This document shows, piece by piece, positions 1 through 22,714 of a DNA stretch of 64,000 bases (positions are counted from its first letter, which is position 1; each line of letters starts with the position of its first letter). The notes under the pieces were generated by a model, which did no database searches, had not been told where the DNA came from, and saw only the letters and a list, made by a program, of their open reading frames with translations. The translations under genes and the position numbers were made by a program. The DNA lies in NCBI RefSeq assembly GCF_017357825.1, contig NZ_CP046072.1, positions 2,542,001-2,606,000 of the forward strand, read 5' to 3'. This DNA comes from Sulfurimonas aquatica. GTDB lineage: Bacteria; Campylobacterota; Campylobacteria; Campylobacterales; Sulfurimonadaceae.

Positions 1-3000
1 GAGTAAGTTAGCATAAGGAACTGATCAGCTTTAATATCTTCTTGTAAAATCAGAGAAGCTATTTTATGTACTAAAACCTTCGTCTTACCACTTCCTGGCC
101 CGGCTAAAATCATCATAGCTTGAGACTCTTTATCGTCAATAACTTTTTTCTGTTGGTCCGAGAGTGAATTGAATATTTTATTATAACGATACTCTGTCAT
201 AGGTCTTTTAAACTTCTCTTTTAATTCACCGTATTTATTAACAAACATTCGATACGAAAGCGTAAAGTAATCTTTCATAAAAGCTTGAGCATGTTTTGAG
301 TTTTTAACCAATCTCTCAGAGTATTCACCGACTATATGTATGGACTCCATTTTCCTCTGGTAGTAAGGCTCTAGTCTAGATTTATATTCAAGCTTTGTAT
401 ATTTTTTATTTGGAACTAACATCTTATCTAGCTTTTTTATATTCATAGGAGCATAGTAAATAAATCGTCCATTACCTAGTTCTAGTATTCTGAGTTCATG
501 TAAATGCAATAATGCTTTATCGATAATTTTTGTACTGTGTACCTCTTTTAAATCTAATGCTTGCTGAAGTTCTAGCATAGAGAACTCAACAACCTCTTTA
601 GTATTGTACTTTTTCTCTTGAAGGTTCGTTGATAAAAAGTTTATAATTTTCAGACCGATGTAGTGCTTGTAATCAATAATACTTTTGACTTTTTCACTAT
701 CAATGAACTCGAAGTACCACAAATCTTTTTGTCTATCAAGTCGGTTAAATTTAAATTGATGCTTGTAACCTATCCAGCTTTTAAGTAGCATTTTTATAAT
801 CGATGTAATATTTTCATCTTTTATATTTAAACTTTCCTCATCTAGTAATACTTGGTTTAATTCACTCATTCTGATACTATGGCTATGTTCTCTCATTAAA
901 TATTCAAACAATATCTTCTCTATTTGAGTATAGCTTTGATATAAGGACAAGCTTTCTTTACTAATCTTCAAACTTAAGTCTTTTGCATCTGAGACTATTT
1001 TCATATCTTTTAATTCTAAGACAGACTGAGTTACGAGTTCATGAGGATAACCAAGTATTTCAGTTAATTCATCAAGCTGAACAGCTTCTGGTTTCCCACT
1101 CCCAAGTAAGGTTTGAAGAACTCTTGATAATCTTGTTTGAGATTCTTCACTATACTCTCTGGTTTTAAATGCTTCATGTAAGATTGCTAAAGAGTCTTTT
1201 GCTACAGCATCTGCATAATATTGAACTTTATTTCTAGAACGTTCTAAATAGTCTTCTCTTTCCAGTTCAAGCAGAGCAGTTTTAACTTTCATATCGTAGT
1301 CGCTAGATTTATCTTCCGTGTCCCATCCAGCTTGAGAAGCAATCTCTCTGGTTGTAAGAGTTACTGGATTTCGACCATCATTTTTAAGAACTCTAAAGAT
1401 TGCATTTATCTCATCCGGATTAATTTTAGAGCGAGTTAATGTAGTGAAGTGTTTATCTAAATCATTTTGTGAGAAAAGTAGTGGACAAGACGCTCGAATA
1501 TTTTGATCTCTTGCCCCTCTTCCTGCTTCTTGAGAATAGTTTTCTAAGGATTCTGATATCTCGTAGTGGATGACATTCTTAATATTTGGCTTATCTACTC
1601 CCATTCCAAATGCAGTAGTAGCTACAACGATATCTACTGTGTCATCTATATACTCTTTTAAAATTTGCATTTTAATATCAGTATCAAGCTTTGAATGGAA
1701 AGATTTAACATTTTTACCTGTGTCTACGGCCAGCTGTTCTGCAATCTCATCGCACTTTTTCGTTGAAGATGGTATATATATAAGTGTCGAACCTTCTTTA
1801 GTATTTATAAGCTCTAGTAAGTTCGTATATTTAGCTTTATCTCCATCTAGTTCATATCCTTCATAATCAAGATTTTTTCTCTCAGGCACTGCAATATAAC
1901 GATTCATTTTAACATTTAAAGAGGATTCAATATATTCAGTTATATCATCCATAACTTTTGGTTTTGCAGTTGCAGTAAAACAAGAAACTGGGATACTGTC
2001 TTGAAAAGGCTTTTGATCCAAGAGGTCATTTATAAATGCACCAATATAAAAATAGTCATGTCTAAAATCATTTCCCCATGTCGAAAGACAGTGGGCTTCA
2101 TCTATTACAAATCTCTCTATAACTCTATTCTTAAGTAGATTAAACACTGCATTAGAACGTAAACTCTCTGGAGCCAAATATAAAATATCAGCATCACCAT
2201 TCACAACTTTTTCCATAGTGTCAGCTCTCTCACTTGGAGACATATAGCCACTTAAAGCTACAGCTTTATAATTAGCTACTGTTTCATGAAAACTTTCCAT
2301 ATGATCTTTTATAAGAGCTTGTAAAGGAGAGATAACAACAGTAAGTGTTTTTAGTGATTTTGCTTTTATGATGGATGGTAGCCAGAAAGTAAAGGTTTTT
2401 CCTCCACCTGTCGGTAAAATAGCTAGAAATGATTCATTTTTAAGTCCTGCTGTTACAATCTCTTTTTGAGAGATAGTAGTTCCTGTTTCAAGTGTAGCAT
2501 CTTGGCGAGGAAAATCTCTAAATGTTCCAAACCCAAAAATATCTTCAGCAGTTGAGCTAAGTTCATCTACGGAACTTTCATAATCAAAGCAAAGTCTTTC
2601 TTGTAAAGATGTTATATCTCTATAATCGTACAGCACTTTAGGCGGTTGGGCATTTACTTCAAGCTCAGGCATACGGATGGCTAATATAAAAGCAAGTTCA
2701 ACTCTATTGTTTTCAAGTGCTTCATTAAGGACATCTGCACTTTTAATAATAGTTTTGAAAATATTTAATATGGAACCTTTGAGAATTATTTCACTCAGTT
2801 CTTCAAAGAGTTTTAATTTAAGTATAAGTTCAAAGAAACCTTTAAATACCTCTTCCTGTTTAAGTAAGGTATATAAAATATTTCTTTGTAATGTTGGAAG
2901 TGTTTTGAATTTTTCTACTGATTTTAAAAGTAGCTCTTTTGATAATTTAGCATCTTTAACCGGGTTATTTAAAAAATTGTCTTCACTCTTATAATTCTTT

Positions 3001-3290
3001 GGTAGATTATGAAATGTTTTTTCATTAAACAGTAGCATTGAAATCGGAAGTGTATCTACGAATATTTTATCATCTAGTAACTGATTAATAGAAGTGCTTT
3101 TTAGTAACTCCTTATCAAAAGCAATAACATTATGACCAGCTATATATTTAGTTGGGGTATTGTGAATATATTCATAGGCTTCTTTAATCGAATTAGTTTT
3201 TAACTCATCTTCTTGAAATATAATTCCTATTTCTTGGATATTGGAGTCAAATGTTGCTTCTAGATCTATATAAAGAGCTTCTATAATCAT
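1..3290 (-). CDS. DEDD exonuclease-RecQ-UvrD fusion helicase (partial, runs off left edge)
   Basis: The gene starts at ATG 3290 and stays open to the window edge, giving about 1096 residues without the C-terminus. Residues 1-120 resemble a DEDD-type 3'-5' exonuclease: YIDLEAT (D9, E11), GHNVIAFD (N54, D59) and a later D113. A RecQ-type SF2 helicase follows, with FRDFPRQ resembling motif 0, PTGGGKT (K298), IDEAH (D397) and QEAGRGARD near residue 588. After a linker, a second motor begins with LAGPGSGKTK (K1069), as in UvrD/PcrA SF1 helicases. The start overlaps the stop of the upstream HNH gene as ATGA, so the two are translationally coupled. Fusing SF2 and SF1 motors to a nuclease suggests DNA processing or defence; that role is inferred. 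The exonuclease third motif is atypical (N109 where H or Y is usual). Confidence 0.85.
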   Translation of the reverse strand, partial: MIIEALYIDLEATFDSNIQEIGIIFQEDELKTNSIKEAYEYIHNTPTKYIAGHNVIAFDKELLKSTSINQLLDDKIFVDTLPISMLLFNEKTFHNLPKNYKSEDNFLNNPVKDAKLSKELLLKSVEKFKTLPTLQRNILYTLLKQEEVFKGFFELILKLKLFEELSEIILKGSILNIFKTIIKSADVLNEALENNRVELAFILAIRMPELEVNAQPPKVLYDYRDITSLQERLCFDYESSVDELSSTAEDIFGFGTFRDFPRQDATLETGTTISQKEIVTAGLKNESFLAILPTGGGKTFTFWLPSIIKAKSLKTLTVVISPLQALIKDHMESFHETVANYKAVALSGYMSPSERADTMEKVVNGDADILYLAPESLRSNAVFNLLKNRVIERFVIDEAHCLSTWGNDFRHDYFYIGAFINDLLDQKPFQDSIPVSCFTATAKPKVMDDITEYIESSLNVKMNRYIAVPERKNLDYEGYELDGDKAKYTNLLELINTKEGSTLIYIPSSTKKCDEIAEQLAVDTGKNVKSFHSKLDTDIKMQILKEYIDDTVDIVVATTAFGMGVDKPNIKNVIHYEISESLENYSQEAGRGARDQNIRASCPLLFSQNDLDKHFTTLTRSKINPDEINAIFRVLKNDGRNPVTLTTREIASQAGWDTEDKSSDYDMKVKTALLELEREDYLERSRNKVQYYADAVAKDSLAILHEAFKTREYSEESQTRLSRVLQTLLGSGKPEAVQLDELTEILGYPHELVTQSVLELKDMKIVSDAKDLSLKISKESLSLYQSYTQIEKILFEYLMREHSHSIRMSELNQVLLDEESLNIKDENITSIIKMLLKSWIGYKHQFKFNRLDRQKDLWYFEFIDSEKVKSIIDYKHYIGLKIINFLSTNLQEKKYNTKEVVEFSMLELQQALDLKEVHSTKIIDKALLHLHELRILELGNGRFIYYAPMNIKKLDKMLVPNKKYTKLEYKSRLEPYYQRKMESIHIVGEYSERLVKNSKHAQAFMKDYFTLSYRMFVNKYGELKEKFKRPMTEYRYNKIFNSLSDQQKKVIDDKESQAMMILAGPGSGKTKVLVHKIASLILQEDIKADQFLMLTY

Positions 3291-4417
3291 ATATTAAAAG
3301 CCTCATGACCTCTGTCGTGAATCAAATAGTCACTCTTATTACATAAAGATTCTATAGCAGTGTTAAGAACCTTATCCTCTGCTATCTCTCTACCAATCAA
3401 AGCAACCTCTATCTGTGACTTAAATAGTAGTGGCATAGCCCGTTGATAATCATTCCAATAATTCATTATAATATCTGCTCGTTTCTCAATGAGTTTTCGA
3501 GTTGGAATCTTAGCTTTTTTCTTTTGCTGGTTAAGTATTCTGTCTGTTGGCAACATATTCCACAAATCATTGTTGAACCAAACAGAGAACGGTAATACAT
3601 GATCAACATCATAGTTCTTGCCTTTTAACTCTTTCCCTGACCAAATACACTCTTTTTCTTGGCCTAGTATTTTCCTAATGGATGTTGTTTCTCTTACTTC
3701 TAGTGTGTCGCCTGATAGCTTCTCAATAATATCTTTGACAGTCTCTTGATTGGCATTTAGAGAGTTGGTTTTTTGTTTCCACTTAGCCATAATTGTTGAT
3801 GTACCATAAAGTGTTTGACCTAAATAACGAAAGATATTGTAGTGCTGCTCTGATATAGAGAAATAACCAAAATCACTCATTACAAAACTAGAGTTGTACA
3901 TCTCATTATTAGCCAATTTCACTGATCCAAACTTATACCTTTGGGGAGTAAAAAATTCATACTCCGACTTGCCCGTATACTTCATAGGCATATTTACAAT
4001 TTTATTTGCCATTTTTTTTGAAAGATTGAGGAACTCTTTTGATAACTCTAGTGACATAGTAGGGTTTTGAAATGCTTTTGTGAATTGCGTATATCCATAT
4101 ACCCATTCTGTTGATATGTCTAAGTTGAGTAGTTTGAATATTTTGTTATATATATCCGTAATTGGTTTATCCAAAACAGTTGTTTTACTTGAGCCTTGCA
4201 GGATATCTTTAAATACGAAAGGCATATAGTCAAGTATCCATTGTTCAACAATAAGTCCTAGTGGGATATTAGCTCTAGAGTTTTCTATGTTTATTAAGTG
4301 GTCATATTTTTGTGAAGCATTAATAACGCTTTTGAGAAGAACATACTTATATGTACTTGATGCAGAGTCATGTTCGATGATATAGTTAATCTGTCTTAAT
4401 GCTTCTGTGTTTATCAT
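3287..4417 (-). CDS. HNH endonuclease
   Basis: A 376-residue protein with an HNH nuclease core near residues 255-305: CIWSGKEL, then DVDHVLPFS (catalytic-type D-H) and NDLWNMLP. The first 230 residues are helical and not recognised. It is the promoter-proximal gene of a two-gene operon; its TGA overlaps the ATG of the RecQ-UvrD fusion helicase by four bases, which argues for a stoichiometric complex or shared pathway. HNH domains cut DNA using a single metal ion. Pairing one with a large helicase in a mobile element is typical of anti-phage modules, but I do not recognise this as a named system. The nuclease call is firm and the biological role is inference. Confidence 0.8.
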   Translation of the reverse strand: MINTEALRQINYIIEHDSASSTYKYVLLKSVINASQKYDHLINIENSRANIPLGLIVEQWILDYMPFVFKDILQGSSKTTVLDKPITDIYNKIFKLLNLDISTEWVYGYTQFTKAFQNPTMSLELSKEFLNLSKKMANKIVNMPMKYTGKSEYEFFTPQRYKFGSVKLANNEMYNSSFVMSDFGYFSISEQHYNIFRYLGQTLYGTSTIMAKWKQKTNSLNANQETVKDIIEKLSGDTLEVRETTSIRKILGQEKECIWSGKELKGKNYDVDHVLPFSVWFNNDLWNMLPTDRILNQQKKKAKIPTRKLIEKRADIIMNYWNDYQRAMPLLFKSQIEVALIGREIAEDKVLNTAIESLCNKSDYLIHDRGHEAFNI

Positions 4418-4829: not shown

Positions 4830-6059
4830 TTATGTAATACTGAATGCATTCAAAGTCGATTGACTACGATATTCCCCACTAATCGATACATGAAATTTTT
4901 CAAAATCAGAGAATTTTTTCTTACTACTTAAAATTGATTCAATGTACTCACGAGTATTATTTGATTTCTTATCTTCTATGACTATTAAGTCAAAATCCTC
5001 TGGAACATAAAATTTATACTCATTTTTATCTTCATCTAAAGCTTCGAATGTATGTTTAAGATAGTTTATTTCATAGATAATTACTTTTTTATTGTACTTC
5101 TTCTTGCGTTTATCTAAGGTTTTACGTCTTGTTTTTATTTTTTCAATTATTGTGTCCGTATCTTCTTTCAAAACCTCTGTAGAACGATTTTCATTAGGTT
5201 GAGTAATTTTAATGTAATCTATATTATCTGAATTGATGATATTTACTAGAGAACCTGCAATATTATCATCAACTTCATTTATATCAATATAATCTTCATT
5301 CAAAATGTTTTTTACGGTTTTAAAAATATCACTTATATTAGTCTCTATTTCAGTAGTCTTAGGTAAATGAACTTTCACTTGAAAACATTTTTCATATAAT
5401 GAAACATAACTATTTCTATAGTCAGTATTGTTAGCGCTAGTTAAATTATTCACGGTAGGATAAACATTTTTTAAAAAATTCATTGGAATATTATGCAGAC
5501 CTACACTACCGTCTGCATTATCTAATTCTATTATTAAAGTTGTAATATCTTCATCTATTATATTTTTAATATACTCAACTATACTCTCATTTATAGGGCA
5601 TAATTTATCCGACATATTGTATTTGTTTTCTTTTATTTTTCCAAAAATATATTTATCAACTACAGATATATCATTATCTTCCCATTTGTCAACTTCCGTA
5701 ACAAAATGATTTTCAAAGTCATCTATGGTGTTTACTTCATGTTCTTTATAAGTTGTAAACCATCCAAAACCTTCAGAATGTTTAAAAAACTGAGCCATAT
5801 TATCAAATGGATCTTTTGATTCCAGCTTTAATTCTTGGATATTAGTACGGTCCAGTTTTTCATCATTATTTACATATTTTGTTTTATATGAACCCTCCAT
5901 AACTTGATATAAAAGTTTTTCATAAAATCTTGCAGAACGATTAGACTTTTTGATTATATAGCCATACTCATTTTTTTCTTTTCTTTTAAATAAAAGAATT
6001 GAAAATATATTCTTTTTCTTTTTCGTATCGGTGTAAAAATTAAATAATGAATATCTCAT
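4830..6059 (-). CDS. Hypothetical protein, second gene of an unrecognised pair
   Basis: A 409-residue hydrophilic protein with no signal peptide or membrane segment and no motif I recognise. It is rich in Asp, Glu, Lys and Asn. A strongly basic stretch near residues 290-310 (KIKTRRKTLDKRKKKYNKK) could contact nucleic acid or mark a domain hinge. It overlaps the upstream gene by ATGA (6056-6059), so the two genes are translated together. Sitting among mobile-element cargo next to a helicase-nuclease operon, the pair is a candidate defence or addiction module, but nothing in the sequence identifies an enzyme. Confidence 0.6.
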   Translation of the reverse strand: MRYSLFNFYTDTKKKKNIFSILLFKRKEKNEYGYIIKKSNRSARFYEKLLYQVMEGSYKTKYVNNDEKLDRTNIQELKLESKDPFDNMAQFFKHSEGFGWFTTYKEHEVNTIDDFENHFVTEVDKWEDNDISVVDKYIFGKIKENKYNMSDKLCPINESIVEYIKNIIDEDITTLIIELDNADGSVGLHNIPMNFLKNVYPTVNNLTSANNTDYRNSYVSLYEKCFQVKVHLPKTTEIETNISDIFKTVKNILNEDYIDINEVDDNIAGSLVNIINSDNIDYIKITQPNENRSTEVLKEDTDTIIEKIKTRRKTLDKRKKKYNKKVIIYEINYLKHTFEALDEDKNEYKFYVPEDFDLIVIEDKKSNNTREYIESILSSKKKFSDFEKFHVSISGEYRSQSTLNAFSIT

Positions 6060-6754
6060 TTTACTTCCTTATATAACTCTAGTAACGTTTCGTTTGTAGG
6101 TGTATTTTTCTCATACCAATCACTAAATGAAAGATATGAACTTGGTTGTTCAGGGCTTTTTAAATAAGAAAAAAGATTTTTATCTAGATCCTTAATACCA
6201 TCTTTTTCTATAGCATCTAAAATTTCATCTTTTAAATTTGTATCTATATCAGCTCTATATTCATCTAAATACATATCAAACTTTGTCATAAATATGTCTA
6301 AGTCTGTTGGATTTACATATTCAAATCCCATACGCGGCCAAACTATTATACCATCAGCAGTTGCATCAATATGAATTTCTTTAAAAGAATTAGCTTTGTA
6401 TAATTCATTTTCATTATTAGCTATTTGACGGGCAGTTCCATCTCCTTTAACACTTAACGCGAATATATGATGGTAAGCAACTTTTCCAGAATTACTTTTA
6501 CCTCTTAACTTTTTATCGGCATAGTATTCTCTAACAACAGGTATATATTCTAAATCTAATGAGCATTTGTAGCGTAACTTTTGCTTGTGGTTTATAATAT
6601 TCCCATTTTTATCATATAGAGAAATACATACATGTTTTATTTTAGTAACATCATCGCAATTATTATAATCAATATTAATTTTAGATAGATTATCTACATT
6701 ATAAATTTTTTCAATAGTAGCATCTGATATAATAGTAGCCTTACACTGATTCAT
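6056..6754 (-). CDS. Hypothetical protein, first gene of an unrecognised pair
   Basis: A 232-residue cytoplasmic protein. The start is supported by AGAGGG five bases upstream of ATG 6754. The only distinctive segment is HIDATADGIIVWPRMGFEY around residues 128-146; the G-x-x-VW-x-R-x-GF pattern resembles a motif I associate with GNAT-fold-like proteins found beside toxins and phage proteins. This resemblance is weak and gives no reaction. It is coupled to the downstream 409-residue gene by a four-base overlap. Base composition is very AT-rich, as in the rest of the element. Confidence 0.6.
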   Translation of the reverse strand: MNQCKATIISDATIEKIYNVDNLSKINIDYNNCDDVTKIKHVCISLYDKNGNIINHKQKLRYKCSLDLEYIPVVREYYADKKLRGKSNSGKVAYHHIFALSVKGDGTARQIANNENELYKANSFKEIHIDATADGIIVWPRMGFEYVNPTDLDIFMTKFDMYLDEYRADIDTNLKDEILDAIEKDGIKDLDKNLFSYLKSPEQPSSYLSFSDWYEKNTPTNETLLELYKEVK

Positions 6755-6808: not shown

Positions 6809-7023
6809 TTAATTATATTTCATGGGCTTTCTAGTTTTTGCAACTTCTTTAAGTAGTTCACCCGCTTTAGTAATTACTTCCATATCTGGAGTTTTTTTCT
6901 TGAAGTTACGATTGCAGCCGATATAGTCCTCTTTTCCTCCTCGCTAAATTCAAATCTCTTTAATACATCATGAACAGTAGTGCCTTTATAAAAAGCTATT
7001 TCAAGTTCCTCCGCATTAGTCAT
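6809..7023 (-). pseudogene. Small gene with a -1 frame break at an A7 run
   Basis: Reading from ATG 7023, the first frame gives about 49 residues (MTNAEELEIAFYKGTT...) and stops at 6874. At a run of seven adenines on the coding strand (about 6892-6898) a -1 shift continues into a sensible reading ending TRKPMKYN and a stop at 6809, for about 71 residues in total. The ATG overlaps the 3' end of the upstream methyltransferase gene by eight bases (stop 7016-7018), so translation is coupled. It may be a broken gene, a sequencing or homopolymer error, or a real programmed slip, since A-AAA-AAA is a classic slippery heptamer. The function is unknown; the charged helical residues suggest a small regulatory protein. 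Confidence 0.5.
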
Positions 7024-7648
7024 TTTTAAATACCACCGTTACCCATGTTAAACTGTCTCTATCTAAGCTGTCATTATTTGTAAGCATTTCAACGAGAGTA
7101 AATCCTTTGACATTGAATAACTCGGTAATATAATCCAAATCTACCTCTTCAAAATATCGTTCATCATTGGCTCTACTACCTTGTGAGTAACTTATAACTA
7201 CTGTAGATTGACTTTTTAGAACACTCACTATACTCTCTACTACATCTTTATATTTAGAGTGTTTTAGGTGCATCCATATAGCTATAGTTATAACTACATC
7301 AAGGTCTTTTGGGAAACCTATGTCTTTTCTATCAAATGGTACGCTCTCTTCAAGGAATTGGTTTTGTTGTGAAGGAAATCTCTTTTTAGCATTTTCTACA
7401 AATTTAGCTGATGGATCTATGCCCCATATGTCATAACCATTGTCATGTAAGAACTGTAAATCTCTTCCAGAACCAAACCCAATATCTAGAATACTGCTAT
7501 TTTTGGGAATATGTTTTAGTAAAAGTTGGTGAAGCGATGACATATTTGCATTATCGTATCTGTCTATGAGTTGTGTAGCATTTGTATTGTAGTAATCTAT
7601 TGTTGTCATTTTTGTGTGAGCCTCATATTTAGATAATAATTCTATCAT
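7016..7648 (-). CDS. Class I SAM-dependent methyltransferase
   Basis: A 210-residue protein with the Rossmann methyltransferase signature ILDIGFGSGRDLQFL (motif I) followed by the acidic loop WGIDPSAKFVENAKKRF, then DVVITIAIWMHL as motif IV/post-II. There is no target-recognition domain, and the family resembles small-molecule or UbiE-type methyltransferases more than DNA methylases. ATG 7648 has AAGGA only two bases upstream, so ATG 7609 (MTTIDYYN) is a credible alternative start. It is followed, with overlap, by the small frameshifted gene. The substrate cannot be told from sequence. Confidence 0.8.
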   Translation of the reverse strand: MIELLSKYEAHTKMTTIDYYNTNATQLIDRYDNANMSSLHQLLLKHIPKNSSILDIGFGSGRDLQFLHDNGYDIWGIDPSAKFVENAKKRFPSQQNQFLEESVPFDRKDIGFPKDLDVVITIAIWMHLKHSKYKDVVESIVSVLKSQSTVVISYSQGSRANDERYFEEVDLDYITELFNVKGFTLVEMLTNNDSLDRDSLTWVTVVFKND

Positions 7649-8033: not shown

Positions 8034-8843
8034 ATGTCTGTATTGCCATTAAATGAAAATGAATTAAGAAATCAAGCCCCAGCACTCTTTACAGAGGAAC
8101 CACACTACGATGTAAGTGATAAATATCACTTTGTATCAACAATAGATGTTATCAGTGAAATAAAATCGCTTAACTGGTATCCAGTTTCAGTAGAGCAATC
8201 ATCAGTAAAAGATGAAGACAAAGAGGGATACCAAAGACACCTCGTTCGTTTTCGTCACTTTGATGATCTACTTAATCCACAAGAAAATGCAGTTGAATTA
8301 TTATTGTTCAATAGCCATGATAGAAGTACAGCATTTTCCATAAGTGCTGGAATCTACCGCTTTGTCTGTAGTAATGGACTTGTTATTGCAGAAAGTGTAT
8401 TTGAATCTTACAAGATAAAGCATATAGGAGACAGATATAACGACATCCAAACAGCTATAGATAAGATAACTTCTTTCAAGCCACAGTTACAGCATAAGAT
8501 AAATAGCTTTGAGTCTATTACGCTCTCACAAGCAGAACAAGAATCTTTCGCTCGTTCATCACTTCCACTTAGATTTGAAAAACACTTAGAAGTAGATATC
8601 AAAGATTTACTTGTTCCACACAGAGATGAAGACATTAAAGATGACCTCTATACAACGCTCAATGTAATTCAAGAAAACCTACTTCGTGGAAATATTTCCG
8701 GTGTTAATAATGTAACAGGTCGTAAGTTTACCTCTCGTGAGATTACTTCTATAGGTAAAGATGTAGATGTAAACCAAGGTCTTTGGGATATAGCAGAGCG
8801 TATAGCTTCAATTAAACAGCCAGAGATGGCATTAGCAGCATAA
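8034..8843 (+). CDS. DUF932 family phage/plasmid protein
   Basis: A 269-residue protein with the layout of DUF932 (phage/plasmid-like protein) members: HFVSTIDVISEIKSLNWYPV near the N-terminus, a central HLVRFRHFDD, and SAGIYRFVCSNGLVIAES. Family members are found in phages, plasmids and integrative elements beside recombination genes; their biochemical role is not established. An AAGGAG site lies ten bases before the ATG. It begins the block DUF932, Gp157-like, Rad52-like, all tightly spaced, so a role in element replication or recombination is likely. Confidence 0.8.
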   Translation: MSVLPLNENELRNQAPALFTEEPHYDVSDKYHFVSTIDVISEIKSLNWYPVSVEQSSVKDEDKEGYQRHLVRFRHFDDLLNPQENAVELLLFNSHDRSTAFSISAGIYRFVCSNGLVIAESVFESYKIKHIGDRYNDIQTAIDKITSFKPQLQHKINSFESITLSQAEQESFARSSLPLRFEKHLEVDIKDLLVPHRDEDIKDDLYTTLNVIQENLLRGNISGVNNVTGRKFTSREITSIGKDVDVNQGLWDIAERIASIKQPEMALAA

Positions 8844-8853
8844 GGAAAATAAA

Positions 8854-9444
8854 ATGAAAATGACAAACTATAGATTACAAACAGAGATAGAACACTTAAC
8901 ACCACTAAGCCAAAAAGATTGGTTTAAAAACTATGTAAAAGAGGTACTTGAAAGCGATAAACCATACCATGTAAAAGCAGACTACATAGGATTATCGTTC
9001 CAGGAACTACAAAACAAGATTGATTATCTATCATCAGATATCAAAGAGCTACAGGCTCTTAAAAGGACTCTCACACAATCAAAAACTTTAGCACAAGAAG
9101 TTACAGCTGCTATTCTTCTAGATTATGGAATTGACCGCTTAGATGGAACATCAATATCTAGTATAACAATCCAAGCACATAAAACTAAGCTCAAAGAAAC
9201 ATTCAAAATTATAAATGCAGAAGCACTTATTAAACTAGGGTTTTGCACAGTAACTGTGGATGAACAAGCAGTCAAAGATGCAATGCTCACAGTTGAAGGG
9301 ATGGATGAGATAGATGAGTTTGTAAAGGTTGATGTAACAAGTGAAGAAGTCCCAGCAAAAATCAAAGTAAACGCCAGAAGATCTAATCAAAATAACCAAG
9401 CTACAGAACTACTGAATTTAGTAGATTCTCAAGAAGCAGCATAA
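8854..9444 (+). CDS. Gp157-like phage protein
   Basis: A 196-residue protein resembling siphovirus Gp157-type proteins: a helical N-terminal half containing a segment of type ELQNKIDYLSSDIKELQALK, probably coiled coil, and a C-terminal half with VTSEEVPAKIKVNARR. It starts ten bases after the DUF932 stop with AAGGAAA upstream. In phages and elements these proteins sit next to single-strand annealing proteins, as here with the Rad52-like gene. The assignment rests on overall layout and neighbours. Confidence 0.55.
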   Translation: MKMTNYRLQTEIEHLTPLSQKDWFKNYVKEVLESDKPYHVKADYIGLSFQELQNKIDYLSSDIKELQALKRTLTQSKTLAQEVTAAILLDYGIDRLDGTSISSITIQAHKTKLKETFKIINAEALIKLGFCTVTVDEQAVKDAMLTVEGMDEIDEFVKVDVTSEEVPAKIKVNARRSNQNNQATELLNLVDSQEAA

Positions 9445-9455
9445 AGGAGATAATA

Positions 9456-10169
9456 ATGTTTAACGATAAAACAAATCAGGTCTTAACTTATGATTTAGAT
9501 AACAGTAGAATTAAAAGTCGCCAAAAAGGCAATATTACCCTCTCATATTTGGAAGGGTTCGATATTATCGAAACGGCTAATAGAGTCTTTGGTTTCGGTA
9601 ACTGGGACTACTCAACTAAGCTAGAAGTTGTATCTCAAGAAATCAATCAAAACCAAAATAATATCATCTGCTATAAAGCACTTGTCAATATTGTTGTTCA
9701 TGATGCATCACACTCTAAGCTTGTATCTCGGGAGGATGTAGGATTTGGTACAGGGATAGCAAAAACTCTAGCAGATGCTCATGAAGGTGGAGCTAAAGAA
9801 GCAGTTACGGATGCTATCAAAAGATGCTTTCGCAGTTTCGGAAATCAGTTTGGCAATTCGCTGTACGACAAGAGTCGTCAACATCAGAACCAACCGCAAA
9901 ACCAAGCACAAAACTTTCAACAACCTGCACAGCTACAACAACAGCAACAGCAACAACAACCATCAACGCAACAAGTGCAAAACAACGCACCACTAGACTA
10001 TTCCTCATTGTATAACTTAGGTTTAACGGTAATGGAACAAGGTCAAAACTTAGTAGTCATTGGTGATGACATCTTTTCTAAAAAAGACAGTATTAAAGCT
10101 TGCGGTTTTAGATGGGATGGTGCTAGTAAGATGTGGTACAAGCCAATAGAACAGCAATCAGCTGCATAA
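9456..10169 (+). CDS. Rad52/22-family single-strand annealing protein
   Basis: A 237-residue protein. Residues 15-135 match the Rad52/Sak annealing fold: SYLEGFDIIETANRVFGFGNWDY, then YKALVNIVVHD, GFGTGIA and AHEGGAKEAVTDAIKRCFRSFG, the last being the family's best-conserved block. A glutamine/asparagine-rich linker follows (about 140-180). The C-terminus has a DUF5710-like module (KACGFRWDGASKMWY) often seen in mobile-element proteins. It should anneal complementary single strands in recombination or circular replication. AAAGGAG precedes the start. The long CAA/CAG run makes strong shadow ORFs in other frames. Confidence 0.85.
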   Translation: MFNDKTNQVLTYDLDNSRIKSRQKGNITLSYLEGFDIIETANRVFGFGNWDYSTKLEVVSQEINQNQNNIICYKALVNIVVHDASHSKLVSREDVGFGTGIAKTLADAHEGGAKEAVTDAIKRCFRSFGNQFGNSLYDKSRQHQNQPQNQAQNFQQPAQLQQQQQQQQPSTQQVQNNAPLDYSSLYNLGLTVMEQGQNLVVIGDDIFSKKDSIKACGFRWDGASKMWYKPIEQQSAA

Positions 10170-16479: not shown

Positions 16480-17571
16480 TTAATTATAAAGTCCCTCTAC
16501 AGCATCTCTACCAGTATCAGGGGCAAGTTTTGCATATCGTAAAGTCATATTTATATCTTTGTGGTTCATCAACTTTTTTATGGTGTAGATAGGTGTTCCA
16601 TTGATTGCGAGATGTGAAGCAAAAGTATGACGTAGTGTATGAGGAACAACTTTGTACTTAGGATCAGTCACTTCTTTGTTAAACATCTTATGCAATACTA
16701 CTCCAACTTTATCTTTCATCTGGTCATATAACTTTGCACCGTTCTCTTGTAAAATAGGTGTATCTTTTTTCCTATTAGCACACCGGATTTCAAGTAACCT
16801 CTCTAACTCTTCGTTACATATAAAGGTTGTGTATCTTTCATCATTCTTTTCATCAATAGTATCTATAGTTTTAGTCTTTAAGTTTATATCTCTCGGTGTA
16901 ATTTGTACAAGTGCTCCAATCCTAGCACCTATATTTAGAGCCAATAAAATACAAAGATAAACTTGTTCATTATCTTTTGTATATTCAAGCAATTCATTAA
17001 TCTCTTCTTGATCTAAATATCTCAGTCTCTTATTGTCAAATTTCAATGGTTTAACTTTTCTTACTGGATTTTCATTGTGAATATTATTTTCAAGAGCATA
17101 TGTATAAACTGTTCCCAACTCTCCAATAATAGTATTGACCATTTTAGGTGCAAACTTTTTAGCATGTATAGATTGTAGCTTTTGTATTTCTTCTGTAGTT
17201 ATTCTTGTAATATCTTTTTGACCCAATGTTGGAGATACATGCATTTCATATTTTCTTTTAGATGTTTGATTACTTTTATTATGTAATGCTTTGATTGTAT
17301 AACTCATCTCTGCAACAGCATCAAGGGTAATGATATTCTTTTTCTTCTTCTTAGTAACAGCAGGAGGTTCTTCTCCAAGATTGATTTGATTGATAAATTC
17401 ATTTCGCTTGTTATAAGCATAAGTCTCTGTGATACCAGCTGATTTTTTACCTACCGTAAAACGCTTTGTTTTATTGTCTTCATCTTTATATGTAATAGAA
17501 TAGCTCATATCTCCATCAGCAAGTTCATTAAGATAAACACCTGTATATTTTTTACTTTTAATTCTACTCAT
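16480..17571 (-). CDS. int: Tyrosine recombinase (integrase)
   Basis: A 363-residue integrase; ATG 17571 has TGAGGG seven bases upstream and removes an unlikely 25-residue extension. An N-terminal arm-binding region is followed by a SAM-like core-binding domain (about 80-180) and the catalytic domain. Catalytic residues visible are R in GARIGAL (about 218), H and R in HTLRH (about 311 and 314), H in MNHKD, and the nucleophile Y in RYAKL (about 346). It should integrate and excise the element at the tRNA 3' end. The gene lies 1.4 kb from the right attachment site, with the first Fic gene between. Confidence 0.92.
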   Translation of the reverse strand: MSRIKSKKYTGVYLNELADGDMSYSITYKDEDNKTKRFTVGKKSAGITETYAYNKRNEFINQINLGEEPPAVTKKKKKNIITLDAVAEMSYTIKALHNKSNQTSKRKYEMHVSPTLGQKDITRITTEEIQKLQSIHAKKFAPKMVNTIIGELGTVYTYALENNIHNENPVRKVKPLKFDNKRLRYLDQEEINELLEYTKDNEQVYLCILLALNIGARIGALVQITPRDINLKTKTIDTIDEKNDERYTTFICNEELERLLEIRCANRKKDTPILQENGAKLYDQMKDKVGVVLHKMFNKEVTDPKYKVVPHTLRHTFASHLAINGTPIYTIKKLMNHKDINMTLRYAKLAPDTGRDAVEGLYN

Positions 17572-17671
17572 AGCGCCCTCAAAATATAGTAAGTTTATAT
17601 TATATAATTTTTCATGTTTGTGCTCCATGAATATATCAAGAAACATATATTATGTGTAAAAAATACAACTT

Positions 17672-17741: not shown

Positions 17742-18815
17742 ATGAATAATGAGTACACACATCCTTTTCTTCCTTTAAAACAAGAGATAGAAAGTAAAAA
17801 AGTATTAAAAAAGATTGTCAGTGCCAACATTGCCCTTGCAGAACTAAAAGGTGCAGTGAAGTCTATCCCTAATCAAAGTATCTTAATCAATGCTCTATCT
17901 CTTCAAGAGGCTAAAGATAGTTCTGAAGTTGAAAACATTGTAACTACACATGATGAACTATATCGTGCTGATATAAGTACATCTAACATATCTCATCAAG
18001 CTAAAGAGGTACAGAATTACAGAGAAGCTCTTTATAGAGGCTTTAGTTTAGTACAAGAACATAAACTACTTCTTAAGAAGCATATTATAGAGATCCAGCA
18101 AGTCCTGGAAAAGAATAATGCAGGGATAAGAACACAAGCTGGTACAATGCTGAAAAACGAAAAAACTGGAGAAGTGATATACACACCTCCTCAAAACCAT
18201 CAAGATATTCAAAATCTAATGGATAACCTAGAACAATATATTAATGATCCGGATATGGATGATTATGATACTCTTGTTAAAATGGCAATTATTCATTATC
18301 AATTTGAATCTATACATCCATTTTATGATGGAAATGGAAGAACAGGTAGAATTATCAACATTCTCTATCTCATGCTAAATGGTTTACTAGAGCTACCTAT
18401 ACTTTATCTAAGCTCTTATATCATTAGCAACAAAAATGACTACTATAGACTATTAACAGAAGTAAGAACTGAAAATTCTTGGGAAGAGTGGATCCTCTAC
18501 ATGCTTGATGGTATAGAGCAAACTTCAAAAGAAAGTGTAAAGCTAATTGCAAATATCAATGTAACTATGACTGAAGTCAAATTATCTCTTAAAAGCAAAC
18601 TGCCAAAGATATACAGTAAAGATTTACTTGAGCTTATCTTTAAACACCCTTATACAAAAATAAGTTTTTTAGTAGATGAACTTGGAGTAACAAGAAAAAC
18701 TGCTACTTCATATCTTAGAGCTATTGAAGATATTGGTATATTAGAAAGTACAAAAGTTGGTCGGGATGTTTACTTCATTAATAAGCAATTATTTTCTTTG
18801 TTACAGAATAGATAA
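17742..18815 (+). CDS. Fic family protein (AMPylase type), with C-terminal HTH
   Basis: A 357-residue Fic protein. The catalytic motif HPFYDGNGRTGR begins at H192 and is complete, so the enzyme should transfer AMP (or another nucleotide) to a target hydroxyl. An N-terminal inhibitory helix motif, SSEVEN (about residues 59-64), makes it a class II self-inhibited Fic protein. Residues 290-350 look like a winged helix (ISFLVDELGVTRKTATSYL). It lies between the integrase and the right attachment site, a usual place for cargo. Proteins with this Fic_N-Fic-wHTH layout are common in bacteria; the target is unknown. Confidence 0.9.
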   Translation: MNNEYTHPFLPLKQEIESKKVLKKIVSANIALAELKGAVKSIPNQSILINALSLQEAKDSSEVENIVTTHDELYRADISTSNISHQAKEVQNYREALYRGFSLVQEHKLLLKKHIIEIQQVLEKNNAGIRTQAGTMLKNEKTGEVIYTPPQNHQDIQNLMDNLEQYINDPDMDDYDTLVKMAIIHYQFESIHPFYDGNGRTGRIINILYLMLNGLLELPILYLSSYIISNKNDYYRLLTEVRTENSWEEWILYMLDGIEQTSKESVKLIANINVTMTEVKLSLKSKLPKIYSKDLLELIFKHPYTKISFLVDELGVTRKTATSYLRAIEDIGILESTKVGRDVYFINKQLFSLLQNR

Positions 18816-18822
18816 GCAATGG

Positions 18823-18843
18823 ATTGGTAACCTATTGGTAACC
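18823..18843 (+). repeat. Tandem 10-mers, possible integrase arm sites
   Basis: attggtaacc is repeated at 18823-18832 and 18834-18843, one helical turn apart, about 130 bp inside the attachment site. A partial copy (ggtaac) lies near 18917. Tyrosine integrases bind arm-type direct repeats at such distances from the core. Confidence 0.4.
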
Positions 18844-18971
18844 ACTATATGTAAAACATGGTAAAACTCTCCATAACTTGCTATAATGATATATTCTCTA
18901 CAGAGCCTATTAGTAGGTAACTTGAAGAGGTTTTACATGACTTTAAGGAACTTTGCAAATACATATGGATA

Positions 18972-19001
18972 GAATTCGAATCTCTGAGGGTCCACCACTT
19001 C
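18972..19001 (+). repeat. Attachment site: tRNA 3'-end fragment, copy 1
   Basis: The 30 bp starting gaattcgaatctctgagggt and ending ccaccacttc match the end of a tRNA: a T-loop (ttcgaat), T-stem 3' strand (ctctg), acceptor strand (agggtcc) and A-CCA. The bases before it do not pair with the T-stem, so this is only a fragment left by integration. The acceptor and T-arm look most like tRNA-Lys, a guess. Confidence 0.8.
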
Positions 19002-19135
19002 AAAACCCCTATTTTACAGCACTTAATCAAAATTTTTCAAAAACAAAACAATAATATTATATGACTTAAGCTTTCTATGGTTCACACTTTCACTTGTATT
19101 AAACAGTACTACAATCGCCAATTCAAATAGCCATC

Positions 19136-19180
19136 AATGATACAATGAAAGTACATAAATGAATCAAAAAATGATACAAT
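19136..19180 (+). promoter_or_regulatory. Direct repeats upstream of fic gene 2
   Basis: aatgatacaat occurs at 19136-19146 and 19170-19180, 34 bp apart, immediately before ATG 19187. The second copy lies only six bases before the start codon, so a protein bound there would block initiation. Confidence 0.45.
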
Positions 19181-19186
19181 TATCTT

Positions 19187-20302
19187 ATGAAAACATATCA
19201 TCAAGCAAAAAAGTGGATTTGGGAAGATAGTAACTTTCCTAACTTTGCCTATGAAAATATCAGCTTAGATACACTAAATTACAAATTTGGTCAGTTAGAT
19301 ATGGTTAAAAAGTTTATGAATGAAGATGATACCAATCAACTGCAATTAGAGCAACTATTAAATGAAGCACTTTCTACTTCAGCTATTGAGGGTGAAACAC
19401 TCCAACGTTCTTCTGTACGATCTTCTATCAATAAAATTCTCAAGCTTGGACTTGAAGATGACTATAGCTACACAAGAGAATCAGATGCACTCATAGAGAT
19501 ATTAATTGATGCAAAAACAAATAAAGAGCCACTCGATAAACCAAGAATACTGCAGTGGCACAAAGCCCTTTTTCCAACAGGAAGTTCAGGGCTACGAGAT
19601 ATCAATGTTGGGCACTTTAGAACAGATAATGAAGATATGCAAATTGTTTCAGGTGCTTGGAACAGAGAAAAGGTTCACTATGTAGCACCACCATCTTCTA
19701 AGATAGAAGAACTAATGGATGGATTTCTTCTTTGGCTCAATAGTGATAGTGAGTTAGGTAGCATCTATAAAGCTACCATAGCCCATCTGTACTTCGTACT
19801 CATACACCCTTTTGATGATGGTAATGGAAGGATAGCAAGAGCCATTACTGATTATGTTCTTGCAGAGTCATCCTTTGCCAATCCTAAATTTTACTCTATC
19901 TCAACTATTATCTACCAAAAGAGAAAAGAATACTATGAGGTGCTTGATAAGGTTTGTATTGCGACTGACCAAGATATATCATTATGGATGCGATGGTTTA
20001 TAAAACTTCTAGAGGAGTCTATTGACTCTACACTTATAGCGATAGAGGCTGTTGGGGTTAAAGCAAAGTTCTGGGACAGACAAAGAGAGACTAAACTCAA
20101 CGAGAGGCAAAAGAAAGTGATTCTCAAGATGCTATCATATTTGCCCCAAGAGTTTGAGGGTGGTATGCGAGTACAAAAGTATATGAGTGTAACAAAAACA
20201 ACAAGACTAACTGCTAGTAGAGATCTTTCTGATTTAGTCTCAAAAGGTGTAATGTTAAGTCATGGAAAAGGTAGAGGTGTATACTATAGTTTAGTGCTTT
20301 AA
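19187..20302 (+). CDS. Fic family protein with N-terminal DUF4172-like region
   Basis: A 371-residue Fic protein, different from the first. It has an N-terminal region (WIWEDSNFPNFAYEN) of DUF4172 type, the inhibitory motif TSAIEGE (about residues 64-70), and the core HPFDDGNGRIAR starting at H207. The core has IAR where canonical AMPylases have TGR, a variation seen in this subfamily. The C-terminus (about 305-370) is a winged-helix region (VTKTTRLTASRDLSDLVSKG). No ribosome site is obvious. It is the first gene inside the passenger island. Confidence 0.88.
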   Translation: MKTYHQAKKWIWEDSNFPNFAYENISLDTLNYKFGQLDMVKKFMNEDDTNQLQLEQLLNEALSTSAIEGETLQRSSVRSSINKILKLGLEDDYSYTRESDALIEILIDAKTNKEPLDKPRILQWHKALFPTGSSGLRDINVGHFRTDNEDMQIVSGAWNREKVHYVAPPSSKIEELMDGFLLWLNSDSELGSIYKATIAHLYFVLIHPFDDGNGRIARAITDYVLAESSFANPKFYSISTIIYQKRKEYYEVLDKVCIATDQDISLWMRWFIKLLEESIDSTLIAIEAVGVKAKFWDRQRETKLNERQKKVILKMLSYLPQEFEGGMRVQKYMSVTKTTRLTASRDLSDLVSKGVMLSHGKGRGVYYSLVL

Positions 20303-20340
20303 GATTAAAATTGGACAGATATTAGGTAAGATATTCTTTT

Positions 20341-20466
20341 GCTCAAAGGGGTTATATAATACTTTTATAGAATCTTTCTAGAACTATATTGCTTAAAATG
20401 GTAATATAATACTTTTTTAGTATTATTTTCAGATTATTTCGCTAAAATAGTACTATATTACTTTTT
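20341..20466 (+). promoter_or_regulatory. Three 26-bp repeats at exact 50-bp spacing before hipBA
   Basis: Related sequences start at 20341, 20391 and 20441: gctcaaaggggttatataat, gcttaaaatggtaatataat and gctaaaatagtactatatta, each followed by actttt or cttttt. The phasing is exactly 50 bp. They likely are operators for the HipB-type repressor, with -10-like TATAAT boxes inside. Confidence 0.6.
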
Positions 20467-20489
20467 AATAAAAGCACTAAAAATGGAAA

Positions 20490-20849
20490 ATGAAAATTAT
20501 GAATGAAAAGAAAGCCATCAAAAGCACTGAGCAGAATTCAATACAAACCAAATTAGGTAAAGCTCTCAACCTAAATAAACATGTGAGCAGCGTAGTTGGG
20601 AAAAAAATAGGAAAACAAGTAGTTCCTTCAAAAAAACCCCAAAGCGAAACAATCAAAGATTTAATGACTCTTGGAGAAATGATTAAGTATAAACGTACTA
20701 AATCAAAATTGTCAATCAAAAAAACAGCTCAACTATGTGGAATAAGTGATAAAACACTTAGAACTGTAGAAAACGGTGGAAATATAAATACCTTAACCCT
20801 TATGACAATTATAAATATGCTTGGTTTAAAGATGACTCTAGGAGAATAA
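20490..20849 (+). CDS. hipB: HipB-like XRE-family antitoxin/repressor
   Basis: A 119-residue protein. ATG 20490 and ATG 20499 are both possible starts. Residues 60-118 are an XRE helix-turn-helix: MTLGEMIKYKRTKSKLSIKKTAQLCGIS-type pattern in which KKTAQLCGIS and DKTLRTVENG form the DNA-reading helices. The N-terminal 55 residues are basic and unstructured-looking, longer than in E. coli HipB. It ends two bases before the HipA start. As in other HipBA pairs it should neutralise the kinase and repress the operon by binding the upstream repeats. Confidence 0.85.
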   Translation: MKIMNEKKAIKSTEQNSIQTKLGKALNLNKHVSSVVGKKIGKQVVPSKKPQSETIKDLMTLGEMIKYKRTKSKLSIKKTAQLCGISDKTLRTVENGGNINTLTLMTIINMLGLKMTLGE

Positions 20850-20851
20850 AG

Positions 20852-22285: not shown

Positions 22286-22714
22286 ATATCCTAAGCCCAT
22301 TATTGATTCTAGGTTCTATCTCTTTAAGTTTAAAAGTTGTACGCTCGTTTATACGCTCTTAGCTATGGATTAGTTCTGTTTTAGCTATTTATTATGCAGA
22401 TCAAGGGGCATAAATTGAACAAATGATATCTTTTTAAATCCCATAAAATAGGGATAAACCTCTATAATAGGTACATTTAAAGCATCCTAAGATATACTTT
22501 TAAATTGAATTCGAATCTCTGAGGGTCCACCACTTCTAAACATACAACAAGCTCCCTAAAACAAGAACTTCAAACACTTTTAAAACAACTAAAATTTATT
22601 TTAATATGTGCCAGCAATATAATGCTCATATATTCGTTACAGTTTTGACTTGGAATTTTTGTCAAAATAATATTATCACAAATAGCTACAGAAGATAAAA
22701 AAGGATTACTGTAA
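22286..22714. other. 429-bp region holding second attachment site
   Basis: No gene is seen. It contains the tail of the passenger island, the second 30-bp tRNA fragment at 22507-22536, and the promoter area of the small membrane-protein genes that follow. No integrase remnant could be read in either direction. Confidence 0.55.
22507..22536 (+). repeat. Attachment site: tRNA 3'-end fragment, copy 2
   Basis: Identical over 30 bp to 18972-19001 and in the same orientation. Again the flanking bases before it do not complete the T-stem, so it is an att half-site and not a tRNA gene. Ordinary chromosomal genes follow, so this is the likely outer right boundary of the integrated DNA. Confidence 0.8.

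What the first reader, a model, noticed from the sequence alone, without database searches (positions are those of the whole stretch)
1..4417. DEDD exonuclease-RecQ-UvrD triple fusion coupled to an HNH nuclease
Seen: one ORF with exonuclease-like motifs (D9/E11, N54/D59), a full RecQ motor (K298, DEAH 397-400, QEAGRGARD) and a second Walker A of UvrD type (K1069), ATGA-coupled to a gene with an HNH core. Two different helicase superfamilies in one chain, with two nucleases, in mobile-element cargo, is the architecture of a DNA-degrading defence or element-competition machine. I do not recognise it as a named system.
Basis: partly seen in the sequence, partly recalled or inferred. Interest (0 to 1): 0.75.

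Follow-up and report, generated by a model that had tools for sequence, protein, structure and literature searches.

The report
Exonuclease–double-helicase gene paired with HNH nuclease
A tRNA-integrated mobile island in a Sulfurimonas-like bacterium carries a giant DNA-unwinding enzyme (exonuclease + RecQ motor + UvrD motor) overlapping a gene for a DNA-cutting HNH enzyme; both belong to separate, widespread, horizontally moving families that have been brought together several times independently, which points to a modular foreign-DNA-destroying system, although no function has been tested.

Summary
Observation confirmed. The fusion gene continues left of the window and encodes 1602 aa: DnaQ-like exonuclease, RecQ, complete UvrD. 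It overlaps the HNH gene by ATGA. The exonuclease has four acidic residues, but an invariant Asn (N108) replaces the usual catalytic His, so its activity is uncertain. Both genes lie in a ~20.7 kb island integrated in tRNA-Ser, bounded by 28-bp repeats.

The fusion is not housekeeping (27 of 349 Campylobacterales genomes; discordant with thrS), and its neighbours hit far more defence models than control genes. But it is no dedicated pair. Most fusions lack the HNH. The HNH belongs to a large separate family whose regular partner is a class I methyltransferase, a HIT protein, or a methyltransferase-HIT fusion (58 of 80 loci).

HNH and fusion are neighbours in four loci, with at least four changes on the HNH tree; elsewhere the fusion overlaps a DUF2779 gene twice. 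This suggests a recurrent, modular nuclease plus helicase-exonuclease machine. The HNH N-terminal half weakly resembles (Z 6.0) the sulfur-binding domain of ScoMcrA. I found no published description. Anti-phage or anti-element function is inference.

The parts
1..3290 (-). 5' two thirds of the exonuclease-RecQ-UvrD fusion gene (residues 1-1096 of 1602; remainder lies left of the window at G000:C1:2540483-2542002)
2496..3290 (-). DnaQ/DEDD-type exonuclease domain and helical linker, residues 1-265; D9, E11, D59, D113 kept, catalytic His replaced by N108
1400..2471 (-). RecQ-type SF2 motor (approx. residues 274-630; K298, DEAH 397-400, QEAGRGARD 587-595)
1..170 (-). start of UvrD-type SF1 motor (approx. 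residues 1041-1096 here; K1069; the rest is outside the window)
3287..4417 (-). HNH nuclease, 376 aa; C-terminal Cas9-type HNH (D272, H273, N296 invariant in 60 homologues), N-terminal helical domain with weak ScoMcrA sulfur-binding-domain-like fold
3287..3290 (-). ATGA overlap: stop of HNH gene and start of fusion
7016..7648 (-). class I SAM methyltransferase, 210 aa, same family as the methyltransferase that is adjacent to or fused with this HNH in other genomes
4830..6754 (-). two overlapping ORFs of no known family (409 aa and 232 aa) lying between methyltransferase and HNH; absent from the other Campylobacterales HNH loci inspected
16480..17646 (-). tyrosine integrase of the island
18975..19002 (+). 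28-bp copy of the tRNA-Ser 3' end (attR-like); partner copy at G000:C1:2540293-2540320, left of the window
22510..22536 (+). third copy (27 bp) of the tRNA-Ser 3' end, bounding a second, tandem segment

Best explanation
The locus is cargo of a tRNA-Ser genomic island and joins two independently mobile modules. Module 1 is a 1602-aa protein with a DnaQ-like exonuclease domain, a RecQ (SF2) motor and a UvrD (SF1) motor in one chain. Module 2 is an HNH endonuclease that usually travels with a class I methyltransferase and/or a HIT protein. I think they act on foreign DNA: the HNH protein recognises and nicks or cuts it through its N-terminal domain, and the two-motor protein loads at the break, unwinds the DNA and degrades it or exposes it to degradation, with its own exonuclease domain trimming if active. 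The methyltransferase would mark, license or sense self or a small molecule; its role is unknown. Shown: the architecture, conserved motor and HNH catalytic residues, exonuclease fold, horizontal transfer, island location, and recurrent independent pairing. Inferred: DNA cutting, unwinding, cooperation between the two, and defence or element competition as the purpose.
For: Complete fusion with both motors. DnaQ fold, nearest S. aureus DinG, itself an exonuclease-helicase, Z 12.9 over 223 residues. HNH core invariant and Cas9-like. Island att sites. Patchy distribution and gene discordance: fusion 38% vs thrS 81% identity to a same-family genome, 71% vs 67% to another family. Neighbours match 126 vs 8 PADLOC families in equal-sized sets, including Type I restriction-modification, an 'mREase_IV'-labelled helicase and PDC-S06. 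HNH-fusion adjacency in 4 loci with different gene orders: window; G348 C1:262632-269128; G348 C1:2050751-2057148; Sulfuricurvum L089. Four changes forced on the HNH tree and two on the fusion tree. Chance of 4 of 13 adjacencies about 3e-13, and 3e-5 even if island clustering raises the rate 100-fold. A second nuclease, DUF2779, overlaps the fusion in G183 and G265.
Against: No functional data. Most fusions stand alone, several between ordinary chromosomal genes. Most HNH loci lack the fusion. N108 in place of the exonuclease His may mean an inactive domain. In the window the methyltransferase is separated from the HNH by two unrelated genes. A Rad52 / Gp157 / DUF932 recombination module lies nearby. 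The PADLOC count is of models, many redundant, and only a few neighbour proteins in 3 of 20 loci were individually confirmed. The chance calculation assumes independence and rough gene numbers.
Confidence: 0.5

Rival explanations
1. The fusion is a recombination, repair or replication helicase that serves the mobile element itself (maintenance, end processing, replication restart), not defence; the HNH is a chance neighbour.
For: Window carries a Rad52, Gp157-like and DUF932 set nearby; in Aliarcobacter pACIB the fusion lies beside parA/parB and replication genes; it occurs on plasmids and in 13 viral-collection contigs; RecQ, UvrD and DnaQ-type domains are all standard repair modules.
Against: Neighbours are enriched for defence models; many copies stand alone in chromosomes without an element-maintenance set; recurrent pairing with nucleases.
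Confidence: 0.25
2. Two unrelated selfish or defence cargo modules (methyltransferase-HNH, and the fusion) accumulated in the same integration hotspot and do not work together.
For: The same tRNA-Ser site carries methyltransferase-HNH without the fusion in three Sulfurimonas MAGs, L086 (contig ends after the HNH), L088 and L092, the last two decayed; gene order and orientation differ between the four paired loci.
Against: ATGA overlap here, close spacing in G348 and same-strand arrangement in all four; independent recurrence far above chance; G348 has the pairing twice, with different subfamilies of both genes, and a displaced tRNA-Ser fragment was found near only one of them.
Confidence: 0.2
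3. The HNH module is a modification-dependent (type IV-like) restriction enzyme related to ScoMcrA that reads phosphorothioate or another DNA mark, and the fusion is an optional degradation partner.
For: Best structural match of the HNH N-terminal half is the ScoMcrA sulfur-binding domain, 5zmn residues 95-248, Z 6.0, rmsd 4.0 A, 135 aligned; invariant K24 and nearly invariant P66 could correspond to R117 (Lys in most homologues) and P165 of the sulfur pocket; 35 of the 42 partner methyltransferases scanned, the number of methyltransferase-HIT proteins in the set, match TIGR04096, a Dnd-associated methyltransferase domain; DndC is absent from 16 Campylobacterales and over cut-off in 1 of 46 other genomes, as expected for an enzyme that attacks foreign phosphorothioate DNA.
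Against: Z 6.0 is below the level that excludes a common helical arrangement; no sequence-profile match to 5zmn nor any convincing Pfam match for the N-terminal half; TIGR04096 matches are under the curated cut-off; the residue correspondence was not checked by superposition; the base rate of dnd was not measured.
Confidence: 0.2

Closest known systems
S. aureus DinG (exonuclease-helicase) and human WRN (exonuclease-RecQ)
   Same: N-terminal DnaQ-type exonuclease domain in front of a DNA helicase; DinG is the top structural match of residues 1-262 (Z 12.9); WRN helicase matches the RecQ part.
   Different: Neither has a second, UvrD-type motor; DinG's helicase is XPD-like (family knowledge); the fusion family has Asn instead of the catalytic His/Tyr.
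PsyrT/RqlH-like RecQ and DpdF helicases of defence systems
   Same: The RecQ part matches PsyrT over residues 274-730 and DpdF over 274-618.
   Different: Those proteins lack the exonuclease and UvrD parts; no PsyrA or Dpd partner genes were recognised here.
Gabija GajB and other UvrD-type defence helicases
   Same: UvrD-type motor matches GajB models.
   Different: No GajA-like OLD nuclease was recognised; the UvrD motor is fused to RecQ.
ScoMcrA (SBD-SRA-HNH, type IV restriction)
   Same: N-terminal DNA-reader-like helical domain followed by a C-terminal HNH.
   Different: No SRA domain was recognised; HNH is of the Cas9 type rather than zinc-finger type; sulfur recognition untested; comes with a methyltransferase or HIT protein.
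Cas9 HNH domain
   Same: HNH core matches Cas9 HNH in sequence (1.3e-6 to 1.5e-8) and fold (Z about 5).
   Different: No RuvC or guide-RNA machinery recognised; no Rfam RNA in window 1-24000.

Membership tests
RecQ family helicase (TIGR00614) | score above curated cut-off, Walker A, DEAH, motif VI | tested here: met
   234.5 bits vs cut-off 219.8; K298, DEAH, QEAGRGARD
Housekeeping RecQ (TIGR01389 equivalog) | score above curated cut-off | tested here: not met
   246.9 vs 640.2 bits; a separate 599-aa RecQ-like frame exists at C1:2477437
UvrD/Rep-type SF1 helicase | N- and C-terminal UvrD domains with motifs I, II, VI | tested here: met
   PF00580, PF13361, PF13538 above cut-off; invariant motifs
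DEDDh/DEDDy exonuclease | DnaQ fold | tested here: met
   model pLDDT 83; many DnaQ-fold matches at Z 10-13
DEDDh/DEDDy exonuclease | four acidic residues D, E, D, D | tested here: met
   D9, E11, D59, D113 invariant or nearly so
DEDDh/DEDDy exonuclease | general-base His or Tyr before the last Asp | tested here: not met
   Asn108 invariant or nearly invariant; it aligns with the His of 9l8b
HNH_4 nuclease | score above Pfam cut-off and HNH catalytic residues | tested here: met
   33.4 vs 22 bits; D272, H273, N296 invariant in 60
Cas9 | full-length Cas9 score | tested here: not met
   TIGR01865 22.4 vs cut-off 100, HNH part only
ScoMcrA-like SBD-HNH restriction enzyme | sulfur-binding domain fold | tested here: inconclusive
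   Z 6.0, rmsd 4.0, 135 aligned; no sequence support
ScoMcrA-like SBD-HNH restriction enzyme | binding of phosphorothioate DNA | not testable with these tools
   needs a binding assay
Restriction-modification system | DNA methyltransferase with (D/N/S)PP(Y/F) or PC motif | tested here: not met
   partner methyltransferase has a small-molecule-type motif IV (VITIAIWMHL) and matches Methyltransf_25/11/23, TehB- and UbiG-like models
Any named system in PADLOC-DB 2.0.0 | full-length match of fusion or HNH | tested here: not met
   only single-module matches for the fusion (first 1096 aa scanned) and the HNH

The most novel reading that the evidence does not exclude
A modular, undescribed immune machine: a methyltransferase/HIT-linked HNH nuclease with a DNA-mark-reading N-terminal domain, repeatedly coupled to large helicase-nucleases (the DnaQ-RecQ-UvrD fusion in Campylobacterota, PLD-DEAD-DUF3427 helicases in Bacteroidota), in which HNH cleavage of marked or unlicensed DNA loads a two-motor machine that destroys it, while the fusion can alternatively take a DUF2779 nuclease.
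Probability: 0.2. Interest if true: 0.75.

Novelty: new variant of a known kind. Interest (0 to 1): 0.55.

Why it matters
Two DNA motors of different superfamilies plus an exonuclease domain in one chain, spread by horizontal transfer and repeatedly paired with interchangeable nucleases, would be a new form of helicase-nuclease immunity. The HNH/methyltransferase/HIT family (409 relatives found from one motif, in bacteria and archaea) seems to be undescribed; the role of a HIT protein and a small-molecule-type methyltransferase beside a nuclease is an open and testable question.

Tried and rejected
Fusion in viral contigs with a single-sequence query found nothing; the alignment query found 13 near-full-length relatives. 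HNH in viral contigs: none, and one weak hit in annotated phages. Foldseek alone gave no significant match for the HNH model. Attempts to gather sulfur-binding-domain homologues for a profile comparison failed: the Pfam accession tried is not held, a motif search found none, the HNH_2 proteins of the order that I looked at showed no such domain. A guide or noncoding RNA near the HNH: no Rfam match. Housekeeping repair gene: rejected by distribution. Resident Dnd partner for the HNH: rejected by absence of DndC. Paper searches found no description of a RecQ-UvrD fusion or of an HNH-methyltransferase-HIT module; the library holds only open-licence papers, so this does not exclude one.
Full report
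1. Checking the observation. The ORF at window 3-3290 on the minus strand is open at the window's left edge. The window lies at G000:C1:2542001-2606000 of a 2.85-Mb Campylobacterales genome; the closest named relatives of these genes are mostly from Sulfurimonas. The complete gene encodes 1602 aa. The full protein has RecQ-type DEAD and Helicase_C domains and complete UvrD N- and C-terminal domains. The HNH ORF at 3287-4417 shares ATGA with the fusion start and matches HNH_4.

2. The exonuclease domain. No Pfam family covers residues 1-270, but in 20 homologues D9, N54, D59, D79, D113 are invariant. A profile of the domain finds two DEDD-like exonucleases in the PDB weakly (best E 0.003). A model of residues 1-265 (mean pLDDT 83) is a DnaQ fold; the best match is S. 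aureus DinG, Z 12.9, rmsd 4.2, 223 residues aligned. The position of the usual catalytic His is Asn108 in nearly every row inspected, from Campylobacterota to viral-collection sequences. The domain may be inactive, or use a different base.

3. Distribution of the fusion. 27 of 349 Campylobacterales genomes have it. Identity to the window copy is 38% in a genome of the same family where thrS is 81% identical, and 71% in another family where thrS is 67% identical. It is therefore exchanged horizontally. Full-length relatives occur on plasmids of Aliarcobacter and Bacteroides, shorter-matching ones in Alphaproteobacteria and other groups, and in 13 IMG/VR contigs. In most places it is a single gene. 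Some neighbours are plainly housekeeping (rplM/rpsI, NAD ligase; identified by eye). Still, 125 neighbour proteins from 20 loci match 126 PADLOC families at 1e-15, against 8 families for 125 control proteins from largely the same genomes. The count is of models, not proteins, and is inflated by redundant models; individually verified cases are Type I restriction-modification next to the second G348 copy, a PLD-DEAD-DUF3427-type helicase in G252, and PDC-S06 plus a LmuB-like protein in G265.

4. The HNH is a family of its own. One scan of 84,980 species genomes with one conserved motif gave 409 relatives, of which the best 80 were kept. Of these 80, 35 have an overlapping or abutting downstream gene of about 288 aa that is a methyltransferase-HIT fusion, 16 a stand-alone HIT gene, and 7 an adjacent methyltransferase gene; 22 have none of these within 200 bp. 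The commonest overlap is 13 nt (23 of 35 for methyltransferase-HIT). In some Alphaproteobacteria, a Pseudoalteromonas and two genomes of the window's genus, methyltransferase and HNH are one protein of about 540-600 aa. The window's own methyltransferase of this family is at 7016-7648, separated from the HNH by two ORFs of unknown family. In six Bacteroidota or archaeal loci a PLD-DEAD-DUF3427 helicase flanks the HNH module, in five of them on the same strand (domain content).

5. Structure of the HNH protein. A model from 60 sequences has pLDDT 84.7. The C-terminal third is a Cas9-type HNH with D272, H273, N296 invariant. The N-terminal half best matches the sulfur-binding domain of ScoMcrA, chain residues 95-248 of 5zmn, Z 6.0, rmsd 4.0, 135 aligned; the published domain is residues 91-260 (PMC6224610). 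This is a lead, not proof: Z is low for a helical domain, no sequence profile supports it, and I could not superpose the sulfur pocket. Suggestive facts are the conserved K24 and P66 and the similarity of 35 of 42 partner methyltransferases (the number of methyltransferase-HIT proteins in the set) to TIGR04096, 'DNA phosphorothioation-associated putative methyltransferase', below its cut-off. HNH-carrying genomes almost never have DndC (0 of 16 Campylobacterales genomes carrying the HNH, the fusion or both; 1 of 46 others).

6. Pairing. Fusion and HNH are neighbours in four known loci: the window (methyltransferase, two ORFs, HNH, fusion); G348 C1:262632-269128 (fusion, methyltransferase, HNH); G348 C1:2050751-2057148 (methyltransferase-HNH fusion protein, then the exonuclease-helicase); and Sulfuricurvum L089 (methyltransferase, HNH, fusion). 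Trees need four changes of the label on the HNH side and two on the fusion side, forced by well supported branches. With 13 Campylobacterota HNH loci, 4 adjacencies by chance have probability about 3e-13, or 3e-5 if island clustering raises the rate 100-fold (rough). The fusion also overlaps a DUF2779 gene in two loci, G183 and G265, on separate branches. So the fusion seems able to take different nuclease partners, and also to work alone.

7. The island. The end of tRNA-Ser plus 5 nt (28 bp, G000:C1:2540293-2540320) recurs at window 18975-19002, and 27 bp again at 22510. The fusion's stop codon lies about 160 bp inside the left end; the integrase is at 16480-17646 near the right end. The tRNA cluster is present in nearly all the genus genomes searched, and displaced tRNA-Ser 3' fragments occur near it in several, so it is an integration hotspot. 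In three Sulfurimonas MAGs (L086, L088, L092) the methyltransferase-HNH module sits directly after the same tRNA-Ser; in L088 and L092 it is decayed.

8. Mechanism. What follows is inference. The simplest scheme consistent with the anatomy is recognition and cleavage or nicking by the HNH protein, followed by loading of the fusion, whose two 3'-5' type motors (by family knowledge) would unwind and, with its exonuclease domain or cellular nucleases, destroy the DNA. The methyltransferase lacks motifs of DNA amino- or C5-methyltransferases, so this is not a classical restriction-modification pair. It may act on a small molecule, RNA or protein, or sense SAM. HIT proteins act on nucleotide-linked phosphates, by family knowledge, so a nucleotide signal or nucleic-acid adduct is possible. 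I give the joint scheme about 0.5.

9. Novelty. Each domain is known. I found no paper describing the triple fusion or the HNH-methyltransferase-HIT module in the open library searched, and PADLOC 2.0.0 has neither. The fusion is, however, an existing family in public annotation as 'RecQ family ATP-dependent DNA helicase'. I rate it a new variant of a known kind: helicase-nuclease foreign-DNA systems.

Noticed in passing
window 8034-10169: DUF932, Gp157/Mu-Gam-like and Rad52-type recombination genes form a single-strand-annealing-like set in the island.
   Followed up: partly
window 17742-22536: Two Fic proteins and a HipA-like toxin kinase lie around and between the second and third tRNA-Ser att copies, i.e. 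a tandem second segment at the same site; Fic-like or HipA-like genes also lie near other members of this hotspot or module (L088, L089, L092; by eye).
   Followed up: partly
L098, L130, L135, L149, L164, L101: A PLD-DEAD-DUF3427 helicase, in three loci with a Nudix-like gene (by eye), flanks the HNH-methyltransferase/HIT module; a second helicase type associated with this HNH.
   Followed up: partly
window 4830-6754: Two overlapping ORFs (409 and 232 aa) with no match in Pfam, NCBIfam, PADLOC or PHROGs sit between methyltransferase and HNH.
   Followed up: no
L101:11119-11502 and L124:2119-2439: In two archaeal loci the gene after the HNH is neither HIT nor methyltransferase but looks like a phosphoribosyl-ATP pyrophosphohydrolase/MazG-like protein (by eye).
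   Followed up: no
L213-L219, residues about 230-250 of the fusion: Viral-collection relatives of the fusion carry a C...C...CxxC zinc-knuckle-like motif after the exonuclease domain that the Campylobacterota members lack.
   Followed up: no
L085: The closest HNH relative (87% identical) is on a 3.3-kb contig of a MAG labelled Staphylothermus (archaeon); most likely a misbinned Sulfurimonas contig.
   Followed up: no
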